Positions 175-6,589 are shown, numbered from the stretch's first letter. The stretch: DNA of 6,589 bases from Deinococcales bacterium (GCA_014378225.1 JACMOA010000148.1:1-6589); one strand, 5' to 3'. Numbers and translations are program-made. Notes: generated by a model from the sequence alone, not told the origin.

Positions 175-469
175 GTAGTTACTCGAGGTTAACTTGCGTA
201 GCTTGTTGCTGTAGGCCAAACACAATGCAGCACAGCACGATTAAGCCAAAAGTGACTCAGGGAATGCGCTGCTCTGAAGAGTCAACACCGATGGGGATGA
301 GCATAGGATTAAAGTATCATGCCCTGATGTCAAGGTTTGAACCCGTGTGTGGTGCAGAAGGGACTAAAATAGCCTTGCGTGCCAGACTTTGGCCCTCGAG
401 CAGTTTCCAAAATAGAGCGGAGCGGTTCTCAAAATGGACTCAATCTCGAGATGAACCTGTTCTCGAGAA
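175..469. other. Intergenic region between transposase and cinA promoter; no gene seen
   Basis: An open frame in phase with cinA runs through here from base 225, but the encoded residues resemble nothing in CinA proteins and the CinA N-terminus aligns only from about 516. I see no RNA gene, no IS end and no strong hairpin. CTCGAG sites lie at 182, 395, 445 and 462, so native-looking sequence begins soon after the transposase stop. The part between 175 and roughly 390 may include the outer end of the insertion sequence. Confidence 0.5.
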
Positions 470-498
470 TAGACAAGTGACTAAGTTTCCTCTATACT
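470..498 (+). promoter_or_regulatory. Probable sigma-A promoter of cinA-thpR
   Basis: TAGACA (470-475, five of six matches to TTGACA) is followed by a 17-base spacer and TATACT (493-498, close to TATAAT). This is textbook spacing. Transcription would start near 504-507, leaving only about ten bases before the preferred TTG start at 516. Two CTCGAG sites (445 and 462) lie immediately upstream, the second ending two bases before the -35 box. Confidence 0.7.
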
Positions 499-515
499 TA
501 CAAGAGGTGTTTACG

Positions 516-1781
516 TTGATAACAGAATTGATGAGTGTAGGAACCGAGCTGTTACTTGGAGAAATCACCGATACTAACGCGGCTTTTCTGGCTAACGACT
601 TGAAAGGGCGCGGGGTTACGCTGCACTTTAAAACCACGGTGGGCGACAACCTCACTCGAGTGGTTTCCACCCTGAAACGGGCGCTCGAGCGTTCCGATTT
701 GGTCATTCTGGGCGGCGGCCTCGGCCCCACCGACGACGACCTCACCCGTGAAGCGATTGCCGAGGTTCTGGGTGAAATACCCCTTATTGATGAAGTTTAC
801 CTCGAGCAATTGCGGGGCTTTTTCCTCTCGAGGGGCCGTACTTTTCCAGAGCAAAATGTGAAGCAAGCCTGGATTTTGCCCAGTGGTGAAGCCCTGCCGA
901 ACCCAGTGGGGACGGCTCCGGGCTGGCTGGTGCGCCCGCAGGCTGACCCCTACGCTGGAAAAATCATCATCGCCCTGCCGGGACCACCTCGAGAGATGAA
1001 ACCCATGTGGCTCGAGCAGGCGATTCCGCGTCTGAATCTTCCCCAAAGTGGTTTTTATCACCGCACCTTCCGCACTTTTGGCATTGGCGAAAGCCATATC
1101 GCCGAAAAACTGGGCGAGCTAACCCAGATGTCCAATCCCAGTGTGGCCACCTACGCACGGCGCGACGGCGTGCATGTGCGGGTGGCGGCACTCTCAGACA
1201 CGCTCGAGGAGGCAAAAGTTCTGGCGGGGCCTGTGGAAAAGACGGTTCAGATGGCGCTCGAGGGTTATGTTTACGGCGCAGACGACCAGACCTTGCCCAA
1301 GATTTTAGGAAGGTTGTTAGGTCAAGCGGGTCAAACCCTCAGTGTGCTCGAAAGCATGACCGGTGGACTAGTGCTGGATGAACTCAGCAATGAAAGCGGC
1401 TCGAGCGCGTGGTTACAGGGTGGTGCGGTGGCCTACACGCAGGAAGCAAAAGCCAGGTTTGGGGTGGGGCTAGAGGACGAATCTTCGTGGGTCAGTGCGG
1501 AAGCCGCGCTCGAGATGGCCCTCAAAGCTAAGGCGTTCTTCGGCTCCGACTGGGCCATTTCCACCACCGGGGTGGCAGGTCCAGAAACGCTCGAGGGCAA
1601 ACCCATCGGCACGCTTTTTGTGGGCATTGCGGGGCCAAACGGCGCTAAAGCATTTGAGACAGTGGGAGCCGGAGACCGCCGCACCCTGAAAGAGCGCTCG
1701 AGCATAAGTGCGCTGGGCTTGTTTTGGCGAGTACTTCTGAATCCTGGTGTGCTCGAGGCCCCATTCGAGGGTCAGGCATGA
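516..1781 (+). CDS. cinA: CinA-like protein: nucleotide pyrophosphatase domain plus NMN deamidase domain
   Basis: This encodes 421 residues, the normal CinA length. The N-terminal half is the MoaB/MogA-like COG1058 domain: SVGTELLLGEI-TDTNA near residues 7-20, GGGLGPTDDDLT at 66-77 and PGPPREMK at 155-162. The C-terminal half is the PncC-type nicotinamide mononucleotide deamidase domain: ESMTGG (279-284, usually ESCTGG), AYTQEAK (306-312) and TGVAGPE (around 351-357). The nucleophile-type Ser280 and the Tyr and Lys of AYTQEAK are kept, while the usual Cys beside the Ser is Met. The family suggests ADP-ribose/FAD-type pyrophosphate hydrolysis and pyridine nucleotide salvage in the cytoplasm. 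I chose TTG at 516 because MITELMSVG then aligns residue for residue with the family start M-x-A-E-I-I-S-V-G, and AAGAGG (502-507) sits eight bases upstream. GTG 507 and ATG 531 are alternatives. The stop overlaps thpR as ATGA. Confidence 0.93.
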   Translation: MITELMSVGTELLLGEITDTNAAFLANDLKGRGVTLHFKTTVGDNLTRVVSTLKRALERSDLVILGGGLGPTDDDLTREAIAEVLGEIPLIDEVYLEQLRGFFLSRGRTFPEQNVKQAWILPSGEALPNPVGTAPGWLVRPQADPYAGKIIIALPGPPREMKPMWLEQAIPRLNLPQSGFYHRTFRTFGIGESHIAEKLGELTQMSNPSVATYARRDGVHVRVAALSDTLEEAKVLAGPVEKTVQMALEGYVYGADDQTLPKILGRLLGQAGQTLSVLESMTGGLVLDELSNESGSSAWLQGGAVAYTQEAKARFGVGLEDESSWVSAEAALEMALKAKAFFGSDWAISTTGVAGPETLEGKPIGTLFVGIAGPNGAKAFETVGAGDRRTLKERSSISALGLFWRVLLNPGVLEAPFEGQA

Positions 1782-2455
1782 GACTCTTTTACGCGCTCCC
1801 GCTGCCGCTCGAGGTGCAAAACGCGCTCGAGGTGGCCCAGAAAAAACTGCGTGGCAACTGGCGAGCGGTGCGCCCGGACCACCTGCACATCACTTTCGCT
1901 TTTCTACCCAAAGCTCCAGAGGGTGCGCTGCAAACCCTGGTCAAACTGGGCCACAAAGTGGGTCGTAATTTTGCCCCCTTCAAAGTTCGACTGCGCGGAA
2001 CGGGTTATTTCCCCGGTGCGGGCAGCCCTCGAGTGTGGTTCGTCAAAGCCGAAGCCCTGTTATCCGGTGGTGAGGAGGGCGACGAAATGGGCCTTATCTC
2101 GAGCGAACTCAGAAGCGGATTGACCCTACCGTTTGAGGACAAACCCTTCAAGGCCCACATCACCCTGGCCCGCAAAAAAGGCCCTGCCCCCCGTCTCGAG
2201 CCGATGATTTTTCCACTCGAGTGGGAAGCGGAGGAGTTTGTGCTGATAGAGTCTCAACTCCATAAAAGTGGCCCGGAATATAGGACCGTCAAAAAGTTCA
2301 GTTTAACCGGACCCAAACGCCCCCCCAAACCGCTCAAGCCAGAAAGATTGCCCGAAGCTGAAGCGAGTAGAGTTTCTCCGCTCGAGCCAGAAGAATTGGA
2401 AGTGCCGAGTTTGCTCGAGCCGTCTCAAACAAACCCACGACCCAACGACCTCTGA
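1778..2455 (+). CDS. thpR: RNA 2',3'-cyclic phosphodiesterase (2'-5' RNA ligase family, 2H superfamily)
   Basis: The product has 225 residues. It begins MRLFYALPLP, typical of LigT/ThpR. The two H-x-T-x motifs of the 2H phosphoesterase fold are present: HITF at 37-40 after RPDHL, and HITL at 127-130 after PFKA. The GxGxFP-type segment (residues 74-79) and PRVWFV (84-89) also fit. Members hydrolyse 2',3'-cyclic phosphates of RNA and can join tRNA halves with a 2'-5' bond in vitro. Its ATG overlaps the cinA stop (ATGA, 1778-1781), so translation is probably coupled. The family core ends near residue 177 (YRTVKKFSLTG). The last ~48 residues form an extra tail rich in Pro, Glu, Lys and Leu and are probably disordered. 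In Deinococcus the cinA-ligT pair is followed by recA, but no recA follows here. Confidence 0.92.
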   Translation: MRLFYALPLPLEVQNALEVAQKKLRGNWRAVRPDHLHITFAFLPKAPEGALQTLVKLGHKVGRNFAPFKVRLRGTGYFPGAGSPRVWFVKAEALLSGGEEGDEMGLISSELRSGLTLPFEDKPFKAHITLARKKGPAPRLEPMIFPLEWEAEEFVLIESQLHKSGPEYRTVKKFSLTGPKRPPKPLKPERLPEAEASRVSPLEPEELEVPSLLEPSQTNPRPNDL

Positions 2456-2497
2456 CCGAAAATCGGCGGACAGGCCTGGTAGGCGGGATGGCCCGAT

Positions 2498-2667
2498 AGG
2501 CGAGCAGGCGGTCTGGCCCGTGAGGTGCCGCTTAGACCAAGACGCCCGGTAGGTGCCGTTTTGCTCAAGACGTGCTGCTTTGTCCAAGACGTGCTGCCTT
2601 TGGGCCAAGACGCGAGCAGGCCCGGTAGGTGCCGTCCAGCTCAAGACAGTGCCGTTTTGCCCAAGAC
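2498..2667 (+). repeat. Array of six ~21-base units ending in CAAGAC
   Basis: Six units follow the pattern R-GTGCYG, then about eight variable T-rich bases, then CAAGAC: 2523-2543, 2551-2571, 2572-2590, 2591-2611, 2627-2647 and 2648-2667. Units 2 to 4 and units 5 to 6 are directly tandem. The others are separated by short linkers containing CCCGGT or GAGCAGGCCCGGT. Unit length is 19-21 bases, about two turns of B-DNA. The first 80 bases (2498-2577) recur almost exactly at 5736-5815. The opening part can fold, since GGCGGTCT at 2507-2514 partly pairs with AGAC...CGCC at 2534-2546. Function is unknown. It could be a genus-specific dispersed repeat or a protein-binding array. It is not a CRISPR, because units are contiguous and there are no equal-length unique spacers. 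Confidence 0.85.
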
Positions 2668-2807
2668 AGTAACAGCGTAAGGCAAGGGTTAGGTTATGCT
2701 GGAGGGGGTTAGATGGGGTAGCATCGCAAATCTACCGTATTTCCACTAGCCCATTTTGTCTACATCAAACTGTCGGGTACTAGGATGACAGAGGTCAAAT
2801 AAAGCAT

Positions 2808-2848
2808 TTTGTGGAAGTGTAGAACCATCGGCGATATACTTCCACAAA
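2808..2848 (+). promoter_or_regulatory. Inverted repeat around a TATACT -10 box: candidate operator/promoter of the ABC-F gene
   Basis: TTTGTGGAAGT (2808-2818) is repeated exactly in inverted orientation as ACTTCCACAAA (2838-2848). Two further pairs (2820-2821 with 2835-2836) extend the dyad after one G/T mismatch. The half-site centres are 30 bases apart, close to three helical turns. The second arm overlaps TATACT (2835-2840), the same hexamer as the cinA -10 box. No good -35 hexamer sits at 17 bases, and TTGTGG (2809-2814) is 20 bases away. If this -10 is used, RNA starts near 2847, so the dyad would act as DNA (an operator) rather than as an RNA hairpin. No regulator gene is visible nearby. 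Confidence 0.5.
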
Positions 2849-2891
2849 CTGATTTAGTCCATTTAACCCAACACGCTAAGCCAATCGTCAC

Positions 2892-2930
2892 ATGCCCTCG
2901 AGCGCCCAACCCCCTAAACTACGGCGGTGA
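2892..2930 (+). CDS. Candidate 12-residue leader peptide (uORF) overlapping the ABC-F start
   Basis: ATG at 2892 opens a frame encoding MPSSAQPPKLRR and closes with TGA at 2928-2930. The TGA overlaps the GTG start of the ABC-F gene (2927-2929) in a GTGA junction. The ABC-F start has no convincing Shine-Dalgarno site, so terminating ribosomes could supply initiation by coupling. The peptide carries a Pro-Pro step, which slows ribosomes when EF-P is limiting, followed by a basic KLRR end. Leader-peptide control is known for several antibiotic-resistance ABC-F genes. A role here is inference, and the uORF itself has only a weak upstream site (TAAG at 2877-2880). Confidence 0.4.
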   Translation: MPSSAQPPKLRR

Positions 2931-5191
2931 AGTCTTCCGCCCCCATTCAAACTACCCTGCTCAGCCTCGAGCACGCTTTTTACACTCGAGGGAAACTGCA
3001 CTTTACGGACCTGAACCTTAGCCTTTGCCGGGGGGAAAAAGTGGCGCTGCTGGGGCGAAACGGGGCCGGAAAAACGACTCTGCTCGAGCTGCTGGGTGGA
3101 CATCTGGCGCTCGAGGACGGGTTGCGCTGGCAGGCTGATGGGCTGAAGACGGCTTACCTGACCCAGCATCCCAATTTCCCAGACGGGGAGACGGTGCGGG
3201 AATTGCTCGAGCGCTCCCGTCCGCTGCAAGCGCTCGAGGCTCAATTGCGCGCCCTCGAGCACGAGCTGGACGCTCGGCCAGAGCTGCTAAGTGTCTGGGA
3301 CGCACTGCACACCCAGTTTGAAAACGGGGGCGGTTACACCTGGAGCGCACGAATGGCCAAAGCGCTAGGGGTGCTCGAGCTGGCCGGGTTCGAGAGTCGT
3401 GAGGCAGTTTCGCTGTCTGGCGGAGAGCGCACCCGGCTGGCCTTGGTGCTGACCCTGCTGTGTGAACCCGACCTGATGTTTCTGGACGAACCCACCAACC
3501 ATCTGGACATCACCATGCGGCTGTGGCTCGAGGACCATCTCAAAAACACCTCGAGCGCGATTCTCTTCACTTCGCATGACCGGGCGCTTCACGACGCGGT
3601 GGCGCAGAAATCCTGGTGGGTGCAGGTCGGGCCTGCGGAGGTAAACCGGGTGCTCGAGTATGGGGGTGGCTACAGCAAAACAGTGATGCAGCGCACCCTC
3701 GAGCGGCGCACCCTCGAGAAACGGGGCCGGGTGACGGGGTTTGAAGAAAATCGGCTCGAGCGTTCCCAGATTCGGCAGTCCAAGTGGGGACGGCGCTCCA
3801 GCGCCCTGCAATCCCGTCTCGAGCGCCTGAATACCGTGGAGGCTCCACTGTTGGAGCGCAAACTGCGGATGAGTTTGCTGGGGGGAAACGCTCGAGCCAA
3901 GTTGGTGATGTGGGGTGAGCATCTGAGTTTTGGTTATGGGCGGATTGCAGAAGGCGAGCGGGATGGCCTGATATATCCCAAGACAAGGCAGACGGCAGAC
4001 GGCAGCAGTGTTTCTGAGGAATCAACCTTTGACGATATGCACCTCCGTCAGAATCTGGAAAACGTAGTTCTCGAGCCAATTCTTCAGGATGTCGCTTTCA
4101 GAGTGCGTCTGGGTGACAGAATCGCGCTCATCGGTCCCAACGGGGCTGGAAAAACTACCCTGCTCAAACTGATACGCGGCGAGCTGCACTCTAGCGACCC
4201 CAGAGCAAAGTTGCTGTTTGAAGGCGGCGCAAAGCTGGCTTACCTGGACCAGCACTATCACGGCCTGCATCCTAAGAAGTCCCTGCTCGAGTTTTTCGAA
4301 GACCGCTTCTCGAGCGCTCGAGCGGTGCAGATGTTGGGGCGCTACGGTTTTGGCGCGGATTACTGGGACCGCCTTCCCGACCAGCTTAGTGGCGGGGAAC
4401 GAGCTAGAGCGGGTCTGGCGCTTATCTCTGGGCTTCGAGCAGACGTGTTGCTGCTGGACGAACCCACCAACCATCTGGATGTGGAAACGCTCGAATCCCT
4501 CGAGGACGCACTTTTAGCCTATCCCGGCGCGGTGGTGGTGGTCACACACGACCGCCGCTTTGCCGACAAGGTGGCTAACCGGGTGTGGAGCCTCGAGAAT
4601 GCTCAATTGATGGAGCGCTCGAGCCTGAAGGACAAGAAAATTCTGGACCCCGCTCGAGCGCTCGAGGATGACCCACCCCTGGTCATCCCACCAGAACCCA
4701 CACCCAGAGAACGCATGAAACTGCTCGAGGACCGCTTGCTCGAGCTTGCTCACACTCTGAACGAGCGCCACTTCAAAACGCCTTTGAGCGGACGGGAAGA
4801 AGGGCGGCTGCGCTCGGAAAGTCACCATACGCGGCTACGTCTGCTCGAGCAGTATTCCGAGGTGTACGGCGCGGAGGTGATAGATGCGGAAGTGCGGCAA
4901 AAACCGCTGTGGATACGCGCCACCAGGGGGGACGCGGGAGCCTTGATTTACGCGAAGGGTGCGTCGGATTGCCCATTCTTACGCTGGGACGGCATTGAGC
5001 TACATTGGGAAGGCTCGGGTGGTTTGCCGTGGTTTCGCCGGACCTTGCTGCTGGGCGCACTGCAAATCCTGCTCGAGCGCTGGGATTGTGCAGCGGTGTG
5101 GTGTCGGGGGGTCAAACTCTCTCGAGCGGGGTATGAAAAGCTGATTTTCAAGCGTCAAAACTCGAGCTTTGCGCCACCAGCAAATGATTAG
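2927..5191 (+). CDS. ABC-F family ATPase (ribosome-associated type) with NBD2 insertion and C-terminal extension
   Basis: The 754-residue protein has two ABC ATPase domains and no membrane segments, as in the ABC-F translation factors and ribosome-protection proteins. NBD1: Walker A GRNGAGKTT (43-51), signature LSGGERTR (163-170), Walker B/catalytic FLDEPTNHLD (185-194), switch His217. NBD2: GPNGAGKTT (403-411), LSGGERAR (487-494), LLDEPTNHLD (509-518), His541. Both catalytic Glu residues (188 and 512) are present. A basic Arg-rich helical linker (about 240-325) corresponds to the P-site tRNA interaction motif. Residues ~339-384 are an insertion between the first NBD2 strand and ILQDV. After residue ~560 come a Pro-rich hinge, a charged coiled coil (about 594-650) and an unidentified ~90-residue domain (660-747). 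The protein is longer than the usual 520-640. The GTG start lies three codons after an in-frame TAA and right before the first ABC strand, so it is well constrained. Whether it acts like Uup, YheS or a resistance factor cannot be read from sequence. Confidence 0.93.
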   Translation: MKSSAPIQTTLLSLEHAFYTRGKLHFTDLNLSLCRGEKVALLGRNGAGKTTLLELLGGHLALEDGLRWQADGLKTAYLTQHPNFPDGETVRELLERSRPLQALEAQLRALEHELDARPELLSVWDALHTQFENGGGYTWSARMAKALGVLELAGFESREAVSLSGGERTRLALVLTLLCEPDLMFLDEPTNHLDITMRLWLEDHLKNTSSAILFTSHDRALHDAVAQKSWWVQVGPAEVNRVLEYGGGYSKTVMQRTLERRTLEKRGRVTGFEENRLERSQIRQSKWGRRSSALQSRLERLNTVEAPLLERKLRMSLLGGNARAKLVMWGEHLSFGYGRIAEGERDGLIYPKTRQTADGSSVSEESTFDDMHLRQNLENVVLEPILQDVAFRVRLGDRIALIGPNGAGKTTLLKLIRGELHSSDPRAKLLFEGGAKLAYLDQHYHGLHPKKSLLEFFEDRFSSARAVQMLGRYGFGADYWDRLPDQLSGGERARAGLALISGLRADVLLLDEPTNHLDVETLESLEDALLAYPGAVVVVTHDRRFADKVANRVWSLENAQLMERSSLKDKKILDPARALEDDPPLVIPPEPTPRERMKLLEDRLLELAHTLNERHFKTPLSGREEGRLRSESHHTRLRLLEQYSEVYGAEVIDAEVRQKPLWIRATRGDAGALIYAKGASDCPFLRWDGIELHWEGSGGLPWFRRTLLLGALQILLERWDCAAVWCRGVKLSRAGYEKLIFKRQNSSFAPPAND
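3941..4078 (+). other. In-frame insertion within the ABC-F NBD2 coding sequence
   Basis: In ABC-F proteins the first NBD2 strand (here LSFGYG, residues 333-338) is normally followed after a few residues by the strand reading ILQDV. Here about 46 extra residues intervene. The DNA contains CCCAAGACAAGGCAG (3977-3991), which resembles the last unit of the intergenic CAAGAC array, followed by tandem GGCAGAC (3987-3993 and 3994-4000) and GGCAGCA. The encoded segment is polar (Ser, Thr, Glu, Asp rich) and probably a surface loop. Almost no CTCGAG falls here: the next sites are at 3891 and 4070. The limits are approximate, because they rest on remembered family spacing. Confidence 0.5.
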
Positions 5192-5239
5192 TAAGGATTC
5201 CGAAAATATCGGCAATGGACGATATTTCCAGAATCCTTA
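5192..5239 (+). repeat. Long imperfect hairpin directly after the ABC-F stop
   Basis: Two 20-base arms (5192-5211 and 5220-5239) pair at 18 of 20 positions around the 8-base loop GCAATGGA. The outer nine pairs (TAAGGATTC with GAATCCTTA) and the inner eight (AAATATCG with CGATATTT) are perfect. The stem begins one base after the stop codon. No T tract follows on either strand, so it is not a standard intrinsic terminator. It could block 3' exonucleases, act as a palindromic mobile repeat, or be a protein-binding site. It is markedly A+T-richer than its surroundings. Confidence 0.85.
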
Positions 5240-5304
5240 TGAGGGGTAGGCTTGGGAAGTGGTTGCCAATAGCCTCGAGCATTTCAGTGCCTTACCCAAC
5301 CCAC

Positions 5305-5326
5305 GTCTTGCCGTTCTTGCTAAGAC
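5305..5326 (+). repeat. Isolated degenerate unit of the CAAGAC repeat
   Basis: TTGCCGTTCTTGCTAAGAC (5308-5326) matches the unit pattern of the arrays, with TAAGAC in place of CAAGAC. It is followed by AGCGTAA, much as the last unit of the first array is followed by AGTAACAGCGTAA. A reversed core (GTCTTG, 5305-5310) overlaps its start. It lies between the ABC-F hairpin and the 3' end of the small - strand gene. Confidence 0.5.
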
Positions 5327-5404
5327 AGCGTAAACAGGCGTTATCGGGCGGTGGGTCTGAATTCTGACCTCAACTCGCAAACTTGAGTTACACCCAAAGC
5401 ATAT

Positions 5405-5650
5405 TTAGGACAGAAACGTCCCAAAACGACTCTCGAGCACCCCTTTCAACTCGAGAGAAGCATTCGGGTGGGCGTAAAGCCGCTCTGCATCAATTTTATC
5501 TTGTACCCGCTCGAGCAACCTCGAGAAGTGCTCTGAAGTTAAGTTGAGTTCGTCAAAGAGTTTCTGGTGAGTCTGAGAAAGCCTTCTGGAACCGTCCTCG
5601 AGCGCGGACACCGCCAGTTCTGCTTCCCAGGGATTGCCTCGGTGAGTCAT
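5405..5650 (-). CDS. Small hypothetical protein, mostly helical, 81 residues
   Basis: Reading on the - strand from ATG (complement of 5648-5650) to TAA (complement of 5405-5407) gives 81 residues starting MTHRGNPWEAELAVSALEDG. I do not recognise a family. The sequence looks helical and charged, with a heptad-like stretch around residues 29-58 (LFDELNL, HFSRLLERVQDKIDAERLY), and has no Cys, signal peptide or membrane segment. Evidence that it is real: TACAAT sits exactly at -12 to -7 of the ATG, the composition looks protein-like, and CTCGAG density is high (5432, 5450, 5510, 5520, 5597) as in the other chromosomal genes. The open frame extends upstream to 6007, but that part runs through the repeat array and antisense to sufE, so I reject the longer form. 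It is divergent from sufE and convergent with the ABC-F gene. Confidence 0.6.
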   Translation of the reverse strand: MTHRGNPWEAELAVSALEDGSRRLSQTHQKLFDELNLTSEHFSRLLERVQDKIDAERLYAHPNASLELKGVLESRFGTFLS

Positions 5651-5656
5651 GGGGAA

Positions 5657-5662
5657 ATTGTA
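5657..5662 (-). promoter_or_regulatory. Leaderless-type -10 box for the small - strand gene
   Basis: On the - strand TACAAT (five of six to TATAAT) occupies -12 to -7 relative to the A of the ATG, with TTCCCC between. This is the TANNNT placement reported for leaderless genes in Deinococcus. No Shine-Dalgarno site precedes the ATG and no clear -35 hexamer is present. Confidence 0.6.
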
Positions 5663-5735
5663 CGGACTTTTTTTGGTGAGCGTGCGAGGGTGGTGAGTAA
5701 GGGTGTAGGTGTGCAGGGGAGCGGCCCAGCCCATG

Positions 5736-5830
5736 AGGCGAGCAGGCGGTCTGGCCCGTGAGGTGCCGCTTAGACCAAGACGCCCGTGAGGTGCCGTTTT
5801 GCTCAAGACGTGCTGAAGTTGGGCCAAGAC
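5736..5830 (+). repeat. Second CAAGAC array, direct copy of the first
   Basis: Bases 5736-5815 match 2498-2577 at 78 of 80 positions. They are identical over 51 bases (to 5786), differ at two bases, then are identical over 27. Three units are present: 5761-5781, 5789-5809 and a third, diverged unit at 5810-5830 (GTGCTGAAGTTGGGCCAAGAC with the internal bases changed). The orientation is the same as in the first array. The two copies are 3,238 bases apart and bracket the ABC-F gene and the small - strand gene. Conceptual translations share peptides between the two loci, but that is a consequence of the DNA repeat. Confidence 0.9.
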
Positions 5831-5867
5831 AGAAAGCTCGGGTGAAAAGCTTCCACTCGAGCACACC

Positions 5868-5888
5868 CATTGCTCATTGCTCATTGCT
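5868..5888 (+). repeat. CATTGCT tandem, three copies
   Basis: Three perfect 7-base copies of CATTGCT lie 69 bases upstream of the sufE start. The tract is short and may be a simple slippage product. No regulatory role can be shown. Confidence 0.7.
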
Positions 5889-5944
5889 CTCACCCCTCTA
5901 GCCAAATGACCGCTCACTTTACCTTTCTTCCCTTCCCCCTCGAG

Positions 5945-5950
5945 TAAACT
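5945..5950 (+). promoter_or_regulatory. Leaderless-type -10 box for sufE
   Basis: TAAACT ends seven bases before the A of the sufE ATG, the exact TANNNT spacing of leaderless genes in Deinococcus. The upstream sequence is pyrimidine-rich and has no Shine-Dalgarno site and no good -35 hexamer at 17 bases. A CTCGAG site (5939-5944) abuts the box directly. Confidence 0.6.
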
Positions 5951-5956
5951 CAGCCC

Positions 5957-6394
5957 ATGAGTGCTCTTCCCCCCAAGCTCGAGAATGTGATTAACGCTTT
6001 TGCACACGCGCCCAAGTCTTTGCGGCTTCAGGCTCTGCTCGAGTACAGCAAAAAGGTTCCGGCCCTACCCCCGCGTTTCAGTGAACACCGTGACCAGCTC
6101 GAGCAGGTTCACGAGTGCCAGAGTCCGTTTTTTCTGGCTACTGAGGTGGAAAACAACAAGGTTCACCTGTTTTTCGAGGCCCCCCCCGAAGCGCCCACCG
6201 TGCGCGGCTTTGCCGGAATTCTACTCGAGGGACTCGAGGACGCCACCCCCGAGGAAGTTCTAAACGTTCCAGACGACTTTTACCGTGAAATGGGCCTTTC
6301 CGAACTCATCACACCAATGCGTCTGCGCGGTATGAACGCCATTTTGAACCGCCTGAAAAACCAGCTCCGCACGGCGGGGTATAGCGCGGCTTGA
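5957..6394 (+). CDS. sufE: SufE-like cysteine desulfuration/Fe-S assembly protein
   Basis: The 145-residue product fits SufE in length and pattern. An N-terminal helical part (LPPKLENVINAFAHAPKSLR) leads to LPP-RF and then VHECQSPFFL, with Cys54 at the persulfide-accepting position. The family usually has GCQS, so Glu53 replaces the Gly. Then come VRGFAGILLEGLEDATPEEVLNVP, split here from the family's GLxALL and tPxEIL motifs, and finally MGLSELITPMRLRGMNAI and LNRLKNQL, matching the family's lgL...LspxRxnGlxaMv.RIk. SufE accepts sulfur from the cysteine desulfurase SufS and passes it to the SufBCD scaffold in the cytoplasm. No suf partner genes are in the window, so this gene stands alone here. 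The ATG at 5957 is supported by the -12 to -7 TAAACT box. A strong terminator follows 16 bases after the stop. Confidence 0.88.
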   Translation: MSALPPKLENVINAFAHAPKSLRLQALLEYSKKVPALPPRFSEHRDQLEQVHECQSPFFLATEVENNKVHLFFEAPPEAPTVRGFAGILLEGLEDATPEEVLNVPDDFYREMGLSELITPMRLRGMNAILNRLKNQLRTAGYSAA

Positions 6395-6410
6395 ACCCCT
6401 CAAGGACTTG

Positions 6411-6444
6411 AAAAGACGCCGCAGAGTGTGCGGCGTCTTTTTTT
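6411..6444 (+). terminator. Strong intrinsic terminator of sufE, symmetric (bidirectional)
   Basis: AAAAGACGCCGCA (6411-6423) pairs perfectly with TGCGGCGTCTTTT (6429-6441) around the loop GAGTG, with seven T residues at 6438-6444. The GC-rich stem and T run make a classic rho-independent terminator for the + strand. The AAAA on the left arm gives TTTT on the opposite strand, so it may also serve the gene converging from the right. Confidence 0.93.
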
Positions 6445-6472
6445 GAACTGAAGGCGTTTCAGGCTCGAGCGT

Positions 6473-6589
6473 TCAACTCACCAGTCCTAATTTGCGGGCC
6501 AAAACATCGTTCAGAATGTACTCGTCTGCGTTCACTTTGAGTAAAGTGCAGCCGCGCTCGAGGTAAAACCCCTTAATCAGTTCCCAGGC
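6473..6589 (-). CDS. Unidentified protein, C-terminal 38 residues (continues beyond right edge)
   Basis: On the - strand the frame is open from the right edge to TGA (complement of 6473-6475). It encodes a protein-like end: AWELIKGFYLERGCTLLKVN followed by ADEYILNDVLARKLGLVS. The mix of hydrophobic strand-like (GCTLLKV) and helical (EYILNDVLARKLGL) segments and a CTCGAG site at 6557 support a real gene. I do not recognise the family. It converges with sufE, and the symmetric terminator lies 29 bases beyond its stop. Confidence 0.65.
   Translation of the reverse strand, partial: AWELIKGFYLERGCTLLKVNADEYILNDVLARKLGLVS

What the first reader, a model, noticed from the sequence alone, without database searches (positions are those of the whole stretch)
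182..6562. CTCGAG is a highly iterated palindrome in this genome
About one copy per 90 bases, in all three codon phases and also in intergenic DNA, cannot come from codon preference for Leu-Glu alone. It points to selection or biased conversion at DNA level, as for HIP1 (GCGATCGC) in cyanobacteria. Candidate causes are a methyltransferase of the same specificity, a mismatch-repair or recombination bias, or a chromosome-organising protein. Here the sites are six bases and contain a central CpG.
Basis: seen in the sequence. Interest (0 to 1): 0.75.

Follow-up and report, generated by a model that had tools for sequence, protein, structure and literature searches.

The report
CTCGAG saturates a Deinococcota-like genome
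An uncultured bacterium, likely of the Deinococcus-Thermus phylum, carries the six-letter palindrome CTCGAG about once every hundred-odd bases, inside genes and between them and roughly fifty times more often than its base composition predicts, likely because a DNA-reading enzyme that is still unidentified favours each copy.

Summary
Confirmed and extended. The window holds 72 CTCGAG (2.2 expected). Its own partial genome holds 14,690 in 1.94 Mb, but GAGCTC, the word read backwards, only 2. Of 111 genomes of the phylum, six (four genera, families f1 and f5) reach 5,900-7,600 per Mb; the other 105 lie between 3,566 and 283 (counts). Excess over synonymous-codon shuffles is 5-24-fold in all three phases, and the word exceeds its one-mismatch neighbours about 40-fold alike in whole samples and in non-coding DNA. 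Proteins follow: Leu-Glu is 2.1-2.5 times expected, against 1.0 in a relative that lacks the word. Spacing is not evened out. No clear methyltransferase orthologue is common to the top genomes in five families; one loose N6_N4 chain touches five of the six and is the best methyltransferase lead. XhoI-type and Vsr nucleases were not detected in them. Most other 6-bp palindromes are avoided there. This is a highly-iterated-palindrome (HIP) phenomenon in a new phylum. I think a symmetric CTCGAG-reading enzyme biases repair or recombination site by site; that step is inferred.

The parts
182..187 (.). CTCGAG, non-coding
395..400 (.). CTCGAG, non-coding leader of cinA
445..450 (.). CTCGAG, non-coding
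462..467 (.). CTCGAG, non-coding
528..1781 (+). cinA-like gene (competence/damage-inducible protein A), 13 CTCGAG: 8 phase 0, 2 phase 1, 3 phase 2; start codon my choice
   Evidence: NF001813 384.9 bits over its cut-off of 379, for the longer ORF 225-1781; sites
655..660 (.). CTCGAG, cinA phase 1
684..689 (.). CTCGAG, cinA phase 0
801..806 (.). CTCGAG, cinA phase 0
827..832 (.). CTCGAG, cinA phase 2
988..993 (.). CTCGAG, cinA phase 1
1011..1016 (.). CTCGAG, cinA phase 0
1203..1208 (.). CTCGAG, cinA phase 0
1257..1262 (.). CTCGAG, cinA phase 0
1400..1405 (.). CTCGAG, cinA phase 2
1509..1514 (.). CTCGAG, cinA phase 0
1590..1595 (.). CTCGAG, cinA phase 0
1697..1702 (.). CTCGAG, cinA phase 2
1752..1757 (.). 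CTCGAG, cinA phase 0
1778..2455 (+). thpR-like gene (RNA 2',3'-cyclic phosphodiesterase), 8 CTCGAG; start codon my choice
   Evidence: TIGR02258 94.9 bits over its cut-off of 65.7, for the longer ORF 1724-2455; sites
1808..1813 (.). CTCGAG, thpR phase 0
1826..1831 (.). CTCGAG, thpR phase 0
2028..2033 (.). CTCGAG, thpR phase 1
2098..2103 (.). CTCGAG, thpR phase 2
2195..2200 (.). CTCGAG, thpR phase 0
2216..2221 (.). CTCGAG, thpR phase 0
2381..2386 (.). CTCGAG, thpR phase 0
2414..2419 (.). CTCGAG, thpR phase 0
2897..2902 (.). CTCGAG, non-coding
2927..5191 (+). ABC-F family ATPase gene, 31 CTCGAG: 22 phase 0, 5 phase 1, 4 phase 2
   Evidence: NF000355 310.2 bits, below its cut-off of 380; sites
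2966..2971 (.). CTCGAG, ABC-F phase 0
2985..2990 (.). CTCGAG, ABC-F phase 1
3083..3088 (.). CTCGAG, ABC-F phase 0
3110..3115 (.). CTCGAG, ABC-F phase 0
3206..3211 (.). CTCGAG, ABC-F phase 0
3233..3238 (.). CTCGAG, ABC-F phase 0
3254..3259 (.). CTCGAG, ABC-F phase 0
3374..3379 (.). CTCGAG, ABC-F phase 0
3527..3532 (.). CTCGAG, ABC-F phase 0
3550..3555 (.). CTCGAG, ABC-F phase 2
3653..3658 (.). CTCGAG, ABC-F phase 0
3698..3703 (.). CTCGAG, ABC-F phase 0
3713..3718 (.). CTCGAG, ABC-F phase 0
3755..3760 (.). CTCGAG, ABC-F phase 0
3818..3823 (.). CTCGAG, ABC-F phase 0
3891..3896 (.). CTCGAG, ABC-F phase 1
4070..4075 (.). CTCGAG, ABC-F phase 0
4286..4291 (.). CTCGAG, ABC-F phase 0
4309..4314 (.). 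CTCGAG, ABC-F phase 2
4317..4322 (.). CTCGAG, ABC-F phase 1
4499..4504 (.). CTCGAG, ABC-F phase 0
4592..4597 (.). CTCGAG, ABC-F phase 0
4618..4623 (.). CTCGAG, ABC-F phase 2
4653..4658 (.). CTCGAG, ABC-F phase 1
4661..4666 (.). CTCGAG, ABC-F phase 0
4724..4729 (.). CTCGAG, ABC-F phase 0
4739..4744 (.). CTCGAG, ABC-F phase 0
4844..4849 (.). CTCGAG, ABC-F phase 0
5072..5077 (.). CTCGAG, ABC-F phase 0
5121..5126 (.). CTCGAG, ABC-F phase 1
5161..5166 (.). CTCGAG, ABC-F phase 2
5274..5279 (.). CTCGAG, non-coding
5405..5650 (-). small ORF, Leu-Glu rich, 5 CTCGAG; start codon my choice
   Evidence: the longer ORF 5405-6007 had no NCBIfam match
5432..5437 (.). CTCGAG, small ORF phase 0
5450..5455 (.). 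CTCGAG, small ORF phase 0
5510..5515 (.). CTCGAG, small ORF phase 0
5520..5525 (.). CTCGAG, small ORF phase 2
5597..5602 (.). CTCGAG, small ORF phase 0
5856..5861 (.). CTCGAG, non-coding
5939..5944 (.). CTCGAG, non-coding
5957..6394 (+). sufE-like gene, 5 CTCGAG, all phase 0
   Evidence: NF006792 36.5 bits, below its cut-off of 160; sites
5978..5983 (.). CTCGAG, sufE phase 0
6038..6043 (.). CTCGAG, sufE phase 0
6098..6103 (.). CTCGAG, sufE phase 0
6224..6229 (.). CTCGAG, sufE phase 0
6233..6238 (.). CTCGAG, sufE phase 0
6464..6469 (.). CTCGAG, non-coding
6557..6562 (.). CTCGAG, non-coding

Best explanation
CTCGAG is a highly iterated palindrome spread through coding and non-coding DNA of this genome and five related ones, and it is likely kept there by a symmetric CTCGAG-reading enzyme that is predicted to bias repair or recombination in favour of each copy. 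Shown: the excess, its presence in every codon phase and in gaps, the same per-site strength in whole samples and in non-coding DNA, spacing that is not evened out, and a matching excess of Leu-Glu in the proteins. Inferred: that the force acts on each copy by itself (a drive, or selection that adds up copy by copy) rather than for one copy per stretch of DNA, because a regional need would level off and even out the spacing. I could not name its gene.
For: Strength is uniform: CTCGAG against the mean of its nine one-mismatch classes is ln 3.66, 3.78, 3.68, 3.64 in G000, G001, G007, G011 at 45-56% GC, and 3.62 in 83.9 kb of strict non-coding DNA; G015 and G019 give 3.21 and 3.03 in small samples centred on methyltransferase genes. 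Non-coding against coding density per kb: G007 5.60 v 5.91, G011 5.92 v 6.08, G001 8.59 v 7.28. Excess by phase over synonymous shuffles: 5.0/16.5/17.9 (G000), 8.5/15.8/20.9 (G001), 11.6/11.3/23.8 (G007), 9.7/14.3/17.8 (G011). Leu-Glu O/E 2.46, 2.16, 2.33, 2.19, 2.08 in G000, G001, G007, G011, G002, Glu-Leu 0.63-0.95 there, and Leu-Glu 1.02 in G003, which has little CTCGAG. Spacing CV 1.02, 0.98, 1.06; counts per 5-kb block are over-dispersed (G007 mean 29.3, variance 51.7; G011 29.9, 62.5). Non-coding close pairs are as expected (26 v 27.2 at 6-11 bp, 42 v 39.0 at 12-20 bp). Turnover with pull-back: where Leu-Glu is kept in G007/G011 orthologues and G007 lacks the word, G011 has it in 30 of 54; where G007 has it, 68 of 80.
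Against: No enzyme was identified. In G000 and G002 non-coding density is below coding (6.95 v 9.35, 2.35 v 4.12 per kb). One-mismatch neighbours are not depleted as a group: transversion classes range from 0.30 to 1.89 of expectation, while the transitions CTTGAG and TTCGAG are 1.30-3.04 and CCCGAG 0.67 (G000), 1.86, 2.21 (non-coding 1.85, 1.51, 1.43), so sites decay by ordinary transitions and no strong correction of T:G at position 3 is seen; drive and additive selection cannot be told apart with these data. P(site in G011) is higher where G007 has one (0.85 v 0.56, p=0.0003; phase 2: 0.75 v 0.17; phase 1: 0.43 v 0.50), so some site memory exists. In coding DNA close pairs are avoided (see rival 2). 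16 tRNA genes (1,271 bp) hold no CTCGAG where about 8 would be expected at the genome density, so the force does not override every constraint.
Confidence: 0.4

Rival explanations
1. Methyltransferase-coupled HIP (Elhai's model): CTCGAG is methylated by a resident, possibly orphan, methyltransferase, and methyl-directed mismatch repair creates and keeps sites.
For: In cyanobacteria HIP words go with methyltransferases of the same specificity (PMC4390886: abstract, passages and part 1 of 2 of section 3.4 seen). m5C at CTCGAG exists in Halorubrum (PMC8112702, passages seen). The top genomes G001, G007, G011, G015, G019 hold 11, 6, 15, 13 and 11 methyltransferase ORFs in the set I examined. One loose chain of N6_N4 methyltransferases (299-362 aa) has a member in each of these five and in none of the other genomes searched with that family; G015 and G001 are 66% identical.
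Against: That chain is linked at 28-33% identity otherwise; its G007 and G011 members share 33% although orthologues in this genus have a median of 69%, and G002, with 10-fold enrichment, has no PF01555 match at all. PF07669 in 14 genomes and PF02384, PF00145, PF02086 in 12 gave no group with a member in all five; G000 itself shows none in any of the five families, but is 59% complete. The best-shared m5C enzyme (63-84% identity to the G007 one) is in G001, G007, G011 and G105 only, 4 of 111, and G105 has just 1,616 CTCGAG per Mb. Methyltransferases beside XhoI-type nucleases match those of the top genomes at 28% at best over 200 residues or more. Elhai's model levels off near one site per kb; here it is 5.9-8.9.
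Confidence: 0.3
2. Nucleoid or chromosome-organising protein: CTCGAG is the binding site of an abundant protein and selection adds sites across the chromosome.
For: Symmetric 6-bp word at one per 110-170 bp, present in all DNA classes looked at except tRNA genes. In coding DNA of G000, G001, G007 and G011, Leu-Glu is written CTCGAG in 301 of 615 cases with another site 20 bp or nearer, against 3,570 of 4,860 beyond (p about 5e-36), as a footprint might require.
Against: The close-pair deficit is absent between genes (26 v 27.2 at 6-11 bp, 42 v 39.0 at 12-20 bp), and Leu-Glu beside a non-CTCGAG Leu-Glu shows part of it (0.51-0.60 at 6-14 bp); G002 shows none. Messenger hairpins or repeat avoidance in genes may explain it. 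No ordered spacing.
Confidence: 0.14
3. DNA uptake signal: competence machinery prefers CTCGAG DNA and molecular drive fills the genome.
For: Uptake sequences do accumulate by drive (PMC1939737, passages seen); many Deinococcota are naturally transformable (recalled).
Against: The known uptake sequences treated there are not palindromes (same passages) and, as recalled, lie near one per kb; extra copies per fragment should stop paying at the density seen here (inference).
Confidence: 0.07
4. It is simply the one palindrome left over: strong restriction removed other palindromes and CTCGAG escaped, with Leu-Glu codon preference on top.
For: The other 63 six-base palindromes stand together at 0.28-0.50 of expectation in the six top genomes; CTC and GAG are common codons in G000.
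Against: CTCGAG is 27-98 times expectation in these six, not merely unavoided; excess persists in phases 1 and 2 and in non-coding DNA.
Confidence: 0.02

Closest known systems
HIP1 (GCGATCGC) and alternate HIPs of cyanobacteria (Elhai 2015, PMC4390886)
   Same: One palindrome in huge excess, dispersed in the genome, shared by related genomes, scarce in some members.
   Different: Other phylum, other word, 6 bp; 5,900-7,600 per Mb against 300-2,700 per Mb for the HIP1 8-mer in most cyanobacteria outside group C1 (Table 2 passage; a 6-mer and an 8-mer are not strictly comparable, and one alternate HIP, rCCGGy, is said there to be higher than the usual range); no clear shared methyltransferase; accompanied by avoidance of most other palindromes and by a Leu-Glu excess in proteins.
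XhoI/PaeR7I-type restriction-modification at CTCGAG
   Same: Same recognition word (recalled).
   Different: XhoI-family nuclease PF04555 is in 4 of 111 genomes, none of the six top ones; the three carriers in genus g9 have 695-974 CTCGAG per Mb against 1,655-1,966 in the three without, so this system seems to lower the word there; the fourth carrier, G008, whose nuclease frame holds stop codons, has 2,032.
DNA uptake sequences (USS/DUS)
   Same: Short word accumulated genome-wide.
   Different: Those are not palindromes; this is palindromic and, against a recalled one per kb, several times denser.
Dcm/Vsr very-short-patch repair
   Same: A repair enzyme can raise its own word (recalled).
   Different: Vsr (PF03852) is in 4 of 111 genomes, none of the six, and CTTGAG is raised, not depleted.

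Membership tests
Highly iterated palindrome (HIP) | Palindrome strongly over-represented against Markov expectation | tested here: met
   48-98 fold over first-order Markov in G000, G001, G007, G011 samples, 27 and 39 in small G015 and G019 samples
Highly iterated palindrome (HIP) | Dispersed through coding and non-coding DNA, not a codon effect | tested here: met
   All phases and non-coding
Highly iterated palindrome (HIP) | Shared by related genomes, scarce in some | tested here: met
   111-genome count, 283 (G052) to 7,584 (G000) per Mb
Highly iterated palindrome (HIP) | Methyltransferase of the same specificity present | tested here: inconclusive
   No clear common orthologue in five families, one loose N6_N4 chain in five of six top genomes; specificities cannot be read from sequence here
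XhoI-type restriction-modification | XhoI-family nuclease (PF04555) in the genomes with the word | tested here: not met
   0 of the 6 top genomes; 4 of 111 in all
Very-short-patch repair | Vsr endonuclease (PF03852) | tested here: not met
   0 of the 6 top genomes; 4 of 111 in all, G002 among them
Very-short-patch repair | Depletion of the deaminated form of the word | tested here: not met
   CTTGAG 1.30-2.15 times expectation in G000, G007, G011, 1.85 in non-coding
DNA uptake sequence | Asymmetric word | tested here: not met
   CTCGAG is its own reverse complement
DNA uptake sequence | Raises DNA uptake | not testable with these tools
   Needs a transformation assay

The most novel reading that the evidence does not exclude
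CTCGAG is the self-mark of a palindrome-reading DNA system: one machinery purges most other 6-bp palindromes and rewards this one, at a pressure high enough to rewrite proteins with Leu-Glu, and it works without a conserved methyltransferase.
Probability: 0.13. Interest if true: 0.92.

Novelty: new variant of a known kind. Interest (0 to 1): 0.72.

Why it matters
Why HIP words exist is, as far as I know, still open. Here is a dense case in another phylum, with graded strength across genera, relatives that lack it, a measurable effect on protein sequence and no clear shared methyltransferase, so the methylation model and its rivals can be tested side by side. Graded carriers include Meiothermus, which can be cultured: a 21-kb stretch of M. 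rufus shows 1.89 per kb, 9-fold over expectation. A 6-bp word at one per 110-170 bp also distorts the codon, dipeptide and k-mer statistics that binning and gene finding rely on.

Tried and rejected
Codon or dipeptide preference: rejected by phases and non-coding DNA. Shared methyltransferase: PF07669 searched in 14 genomes, PF02384, PF01555, PF00145 and PF02086 in 12, and the hits compared; no clear common orthologue. On checking this report I found that I had passed over a loose N6_N4 chain that has a member in each of the five more complete top genomes; searches examined it; it stays a lead, and I moved 0.02-0.03 of the odds from my reading to the methyltransferase rival for it. One search read minus-strand hits wrongly and is replaced. 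One m5C family looked promising (G001, G007, G011) and failed the phylum test. XhoI nuclease and Vsr: not detected in the top genomes. Protein footprint from the close-pair deficit: dropped because the deficit is confined to coding DNA; other 6-bp inverted repeats in 500 genes are not depleted (1.05-1.25 of shuffles), so hairpin avoidance is not proven either. Helical or nucleosome-like spacing: none seen. Densities counted masked N as sequence for G000 and G001, which inflated dipeptide ratios; one search replaces them. Rows dropped: pieces under 300 bp after cutting at N, named loci under 8 kb (80 to 72), reciprocal hits under 45% identity. The G000/G007 and G000/G011 orthologue comparisons had only 3 and 2 pairs and say nothing. 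Literature: the searches listed no paper on CTCGAG excess in this phylum; the library holds open-licence papers only. PMC5317091 (Caldithrix, passages) concerns another, longer palindrome.

Full report
Observation. The window has 72 CTCGAG against 2.17 expected and never more than 6 in 200 shuffles. Forty-five lie in the Leu-Glu phase, 17 in the other two phases and 10 between genes. The genes are ordinary: cinA, thpR, an ABC-F ATPase and a sufE-like gene.

Genome and phylum. The window is contig C11 of a 1.94-Mb, 59% complete assembly with 14,690 CTCGAG and 2 GAGCTC. Part of the sampled contigs reads N, so the density per readable base is higher than the plain quotient: 8.88 per kb in 70.6 kb. 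In 111 genomes of the phylum, per Mb of rounded genome size: G000 7,584, G001 6,248, G007 5,904, G011 6,050, G015 6,457, G019 6,262; then G002 3,566, G063 3,421, G068 3,072; the lowest are G052 283, G041 289 and G003 297, the last in the window's own family. In the six top genomes GAGCTC counts are 2, 25, 15, 4, 9, 9, in the order given. Among 72 named loci from many phyla the highest CTCGAG ratio after Meiothermus rufus (9.1) is 2.7.

A DNA-level force. Against shuffles that keep protein and codon usage, the excess is 5.0, 16.5, 17.9-fold by phase in G000, 8.5, 15.8, 20.9 in G001, 11.6, 11.3, 23.8 in G007, 9.7, 14.3, 17.8 in G011; G002 has 3.7, 7.0, 4.9, and G003 0.4, 3.1, 0.2 on 16 sites. 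Non-coding against coding density is 6.95 v 9.35, 8.59 v 7.28, 5.60 v 5.91, 5.92 v 6.08 and 2.35 v 4.12 per kb in G000, G001, G007, G011, G002, so it is equal in the large samples and lower in two others. The ratio of the word to its one-mismatch neighbours is 38-44 in G000, G001, G007, G011 and 37 in strict non-coding DNA of G000, G007 and G011. Read as a mutation-selection or drive balance this is a scaled strength near 3.6 per site (inference). Samples of G015 and G019 give 25 and 21; they are small and centred on methyltransferase genes.

Effect on proteins. Leu-Glu is the most over-represented dipeptide in G000, G001, G007, G011 and G002 (2.08-2.46 of expectation, among dipeptides with more than 30 expected) and is at 1.02 in G003; Ser-Ser, which phase 2 can write, is 1.49-1.79 in the same five and 1.16 in G003. 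In G000 355 of 425 Leu-Glu are written CTCGAG.

Dynamics. In 42 G007/G011 orthologue pairs (13,415 residues), conserved Leu-Glu is CTCGAG in both 68 times, in one only 12 and 30, in neither 24: sites turn over yet return, with some memory. Methyltransferase ORFs, likely mobile, carry 3.2-4.9 per kb per genome, below their genomes yet far above the median of 0.10 in the 72 named loci; two of them have none. Incoming DNA seems to gain the word with time (inference).

What reads it. The nearest to a shared methyltransferase is the loose N6_N4 chain L103 (G007), L116 (G011), L106 (G019), L107 (G015), L112 (G001): 66% identity for G015/G001, 23-34% over long alignments otherwise. Its members resemble each other somewhat more (up to 157 bits outside the 66% pair) than they resemble other N6_N4 enzymes (up to 81 bits), but members of one genus at 33% do not look like orthologues. 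The correlation between CTCGAG strength and avoidance of the other 63 palindromes over 11 samples is r = -0.85 (Spearman -0.61, p = 0.047); the samples are related and unequal in size, so this is a lead only. Avoidance holds in non-coding DNA too (0.47). It is not universal: AATATT, AGCGCT and some others are above expectation.

Limits. Confidence that this is a HIP-class phenomenon of DNA origin is about 0.95; confidence in the committed mechanism is 0.40.

Noticed in passing
G000, G001, G007, G011, G015, G019 samples: The other 63 six-base palindromes stand together at 0.28-0.50 of Markov expectation while non-palindromic hexamers have a median of 0.93-0.97; single four-base words are nearly gone too: GATC 13 v 268 in G000, CCGG 3 v 65 in G001, GGCC 3 v 248 in the first 100 kb of G007 (zero-order expectations).
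   Followed up: partly
G000, G001, G007, G011, G015, G068 and M. rufus samples: AGCGCT is mildly over-represented (1.3-2.2 fold) in genomes where most palindromes are avoided.
   Followed up: no
window 2491-2667 and 5729-5830; L020 2453-2472: An intergenic repeat family of 28-base units (reference copy GCCCGGTAGGTGCCGTTTTGCTCAAGAC), seven copies in two clusters in the window, and an exact 20-base piece in one other of 347 loci, a G000 contig; the listed copies hold no CTCGAG.
   Followed up: partly
G017, G042, G048 (L148-L150) and G008 (L151): XhoI-family nucleases sit beside two unlike methyltransferases (N6_N4 type; Eco57I/TaqI_C type); the G008 nuclease frame holds stop codons. The three carriers in genus g9 have about half the CTCGAG of the three non-carriers.
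   Followed up: partly
coding DNA of G000, G001, G007, G011: Leu-Glu is written CTCGAG less often when another CTCGAG lies within 20 bp (301 of 615 v 3,570 of 4,860); non-coding DNA shows no such deficit.
   Followed up: yes
window 528-1781 (cinA): The protein is 65% identical to that of G019 (family f5) but 54% to that of G001, labelled same genus, so placement or binning of this partial genome may be uncertain.
   Followed up: no
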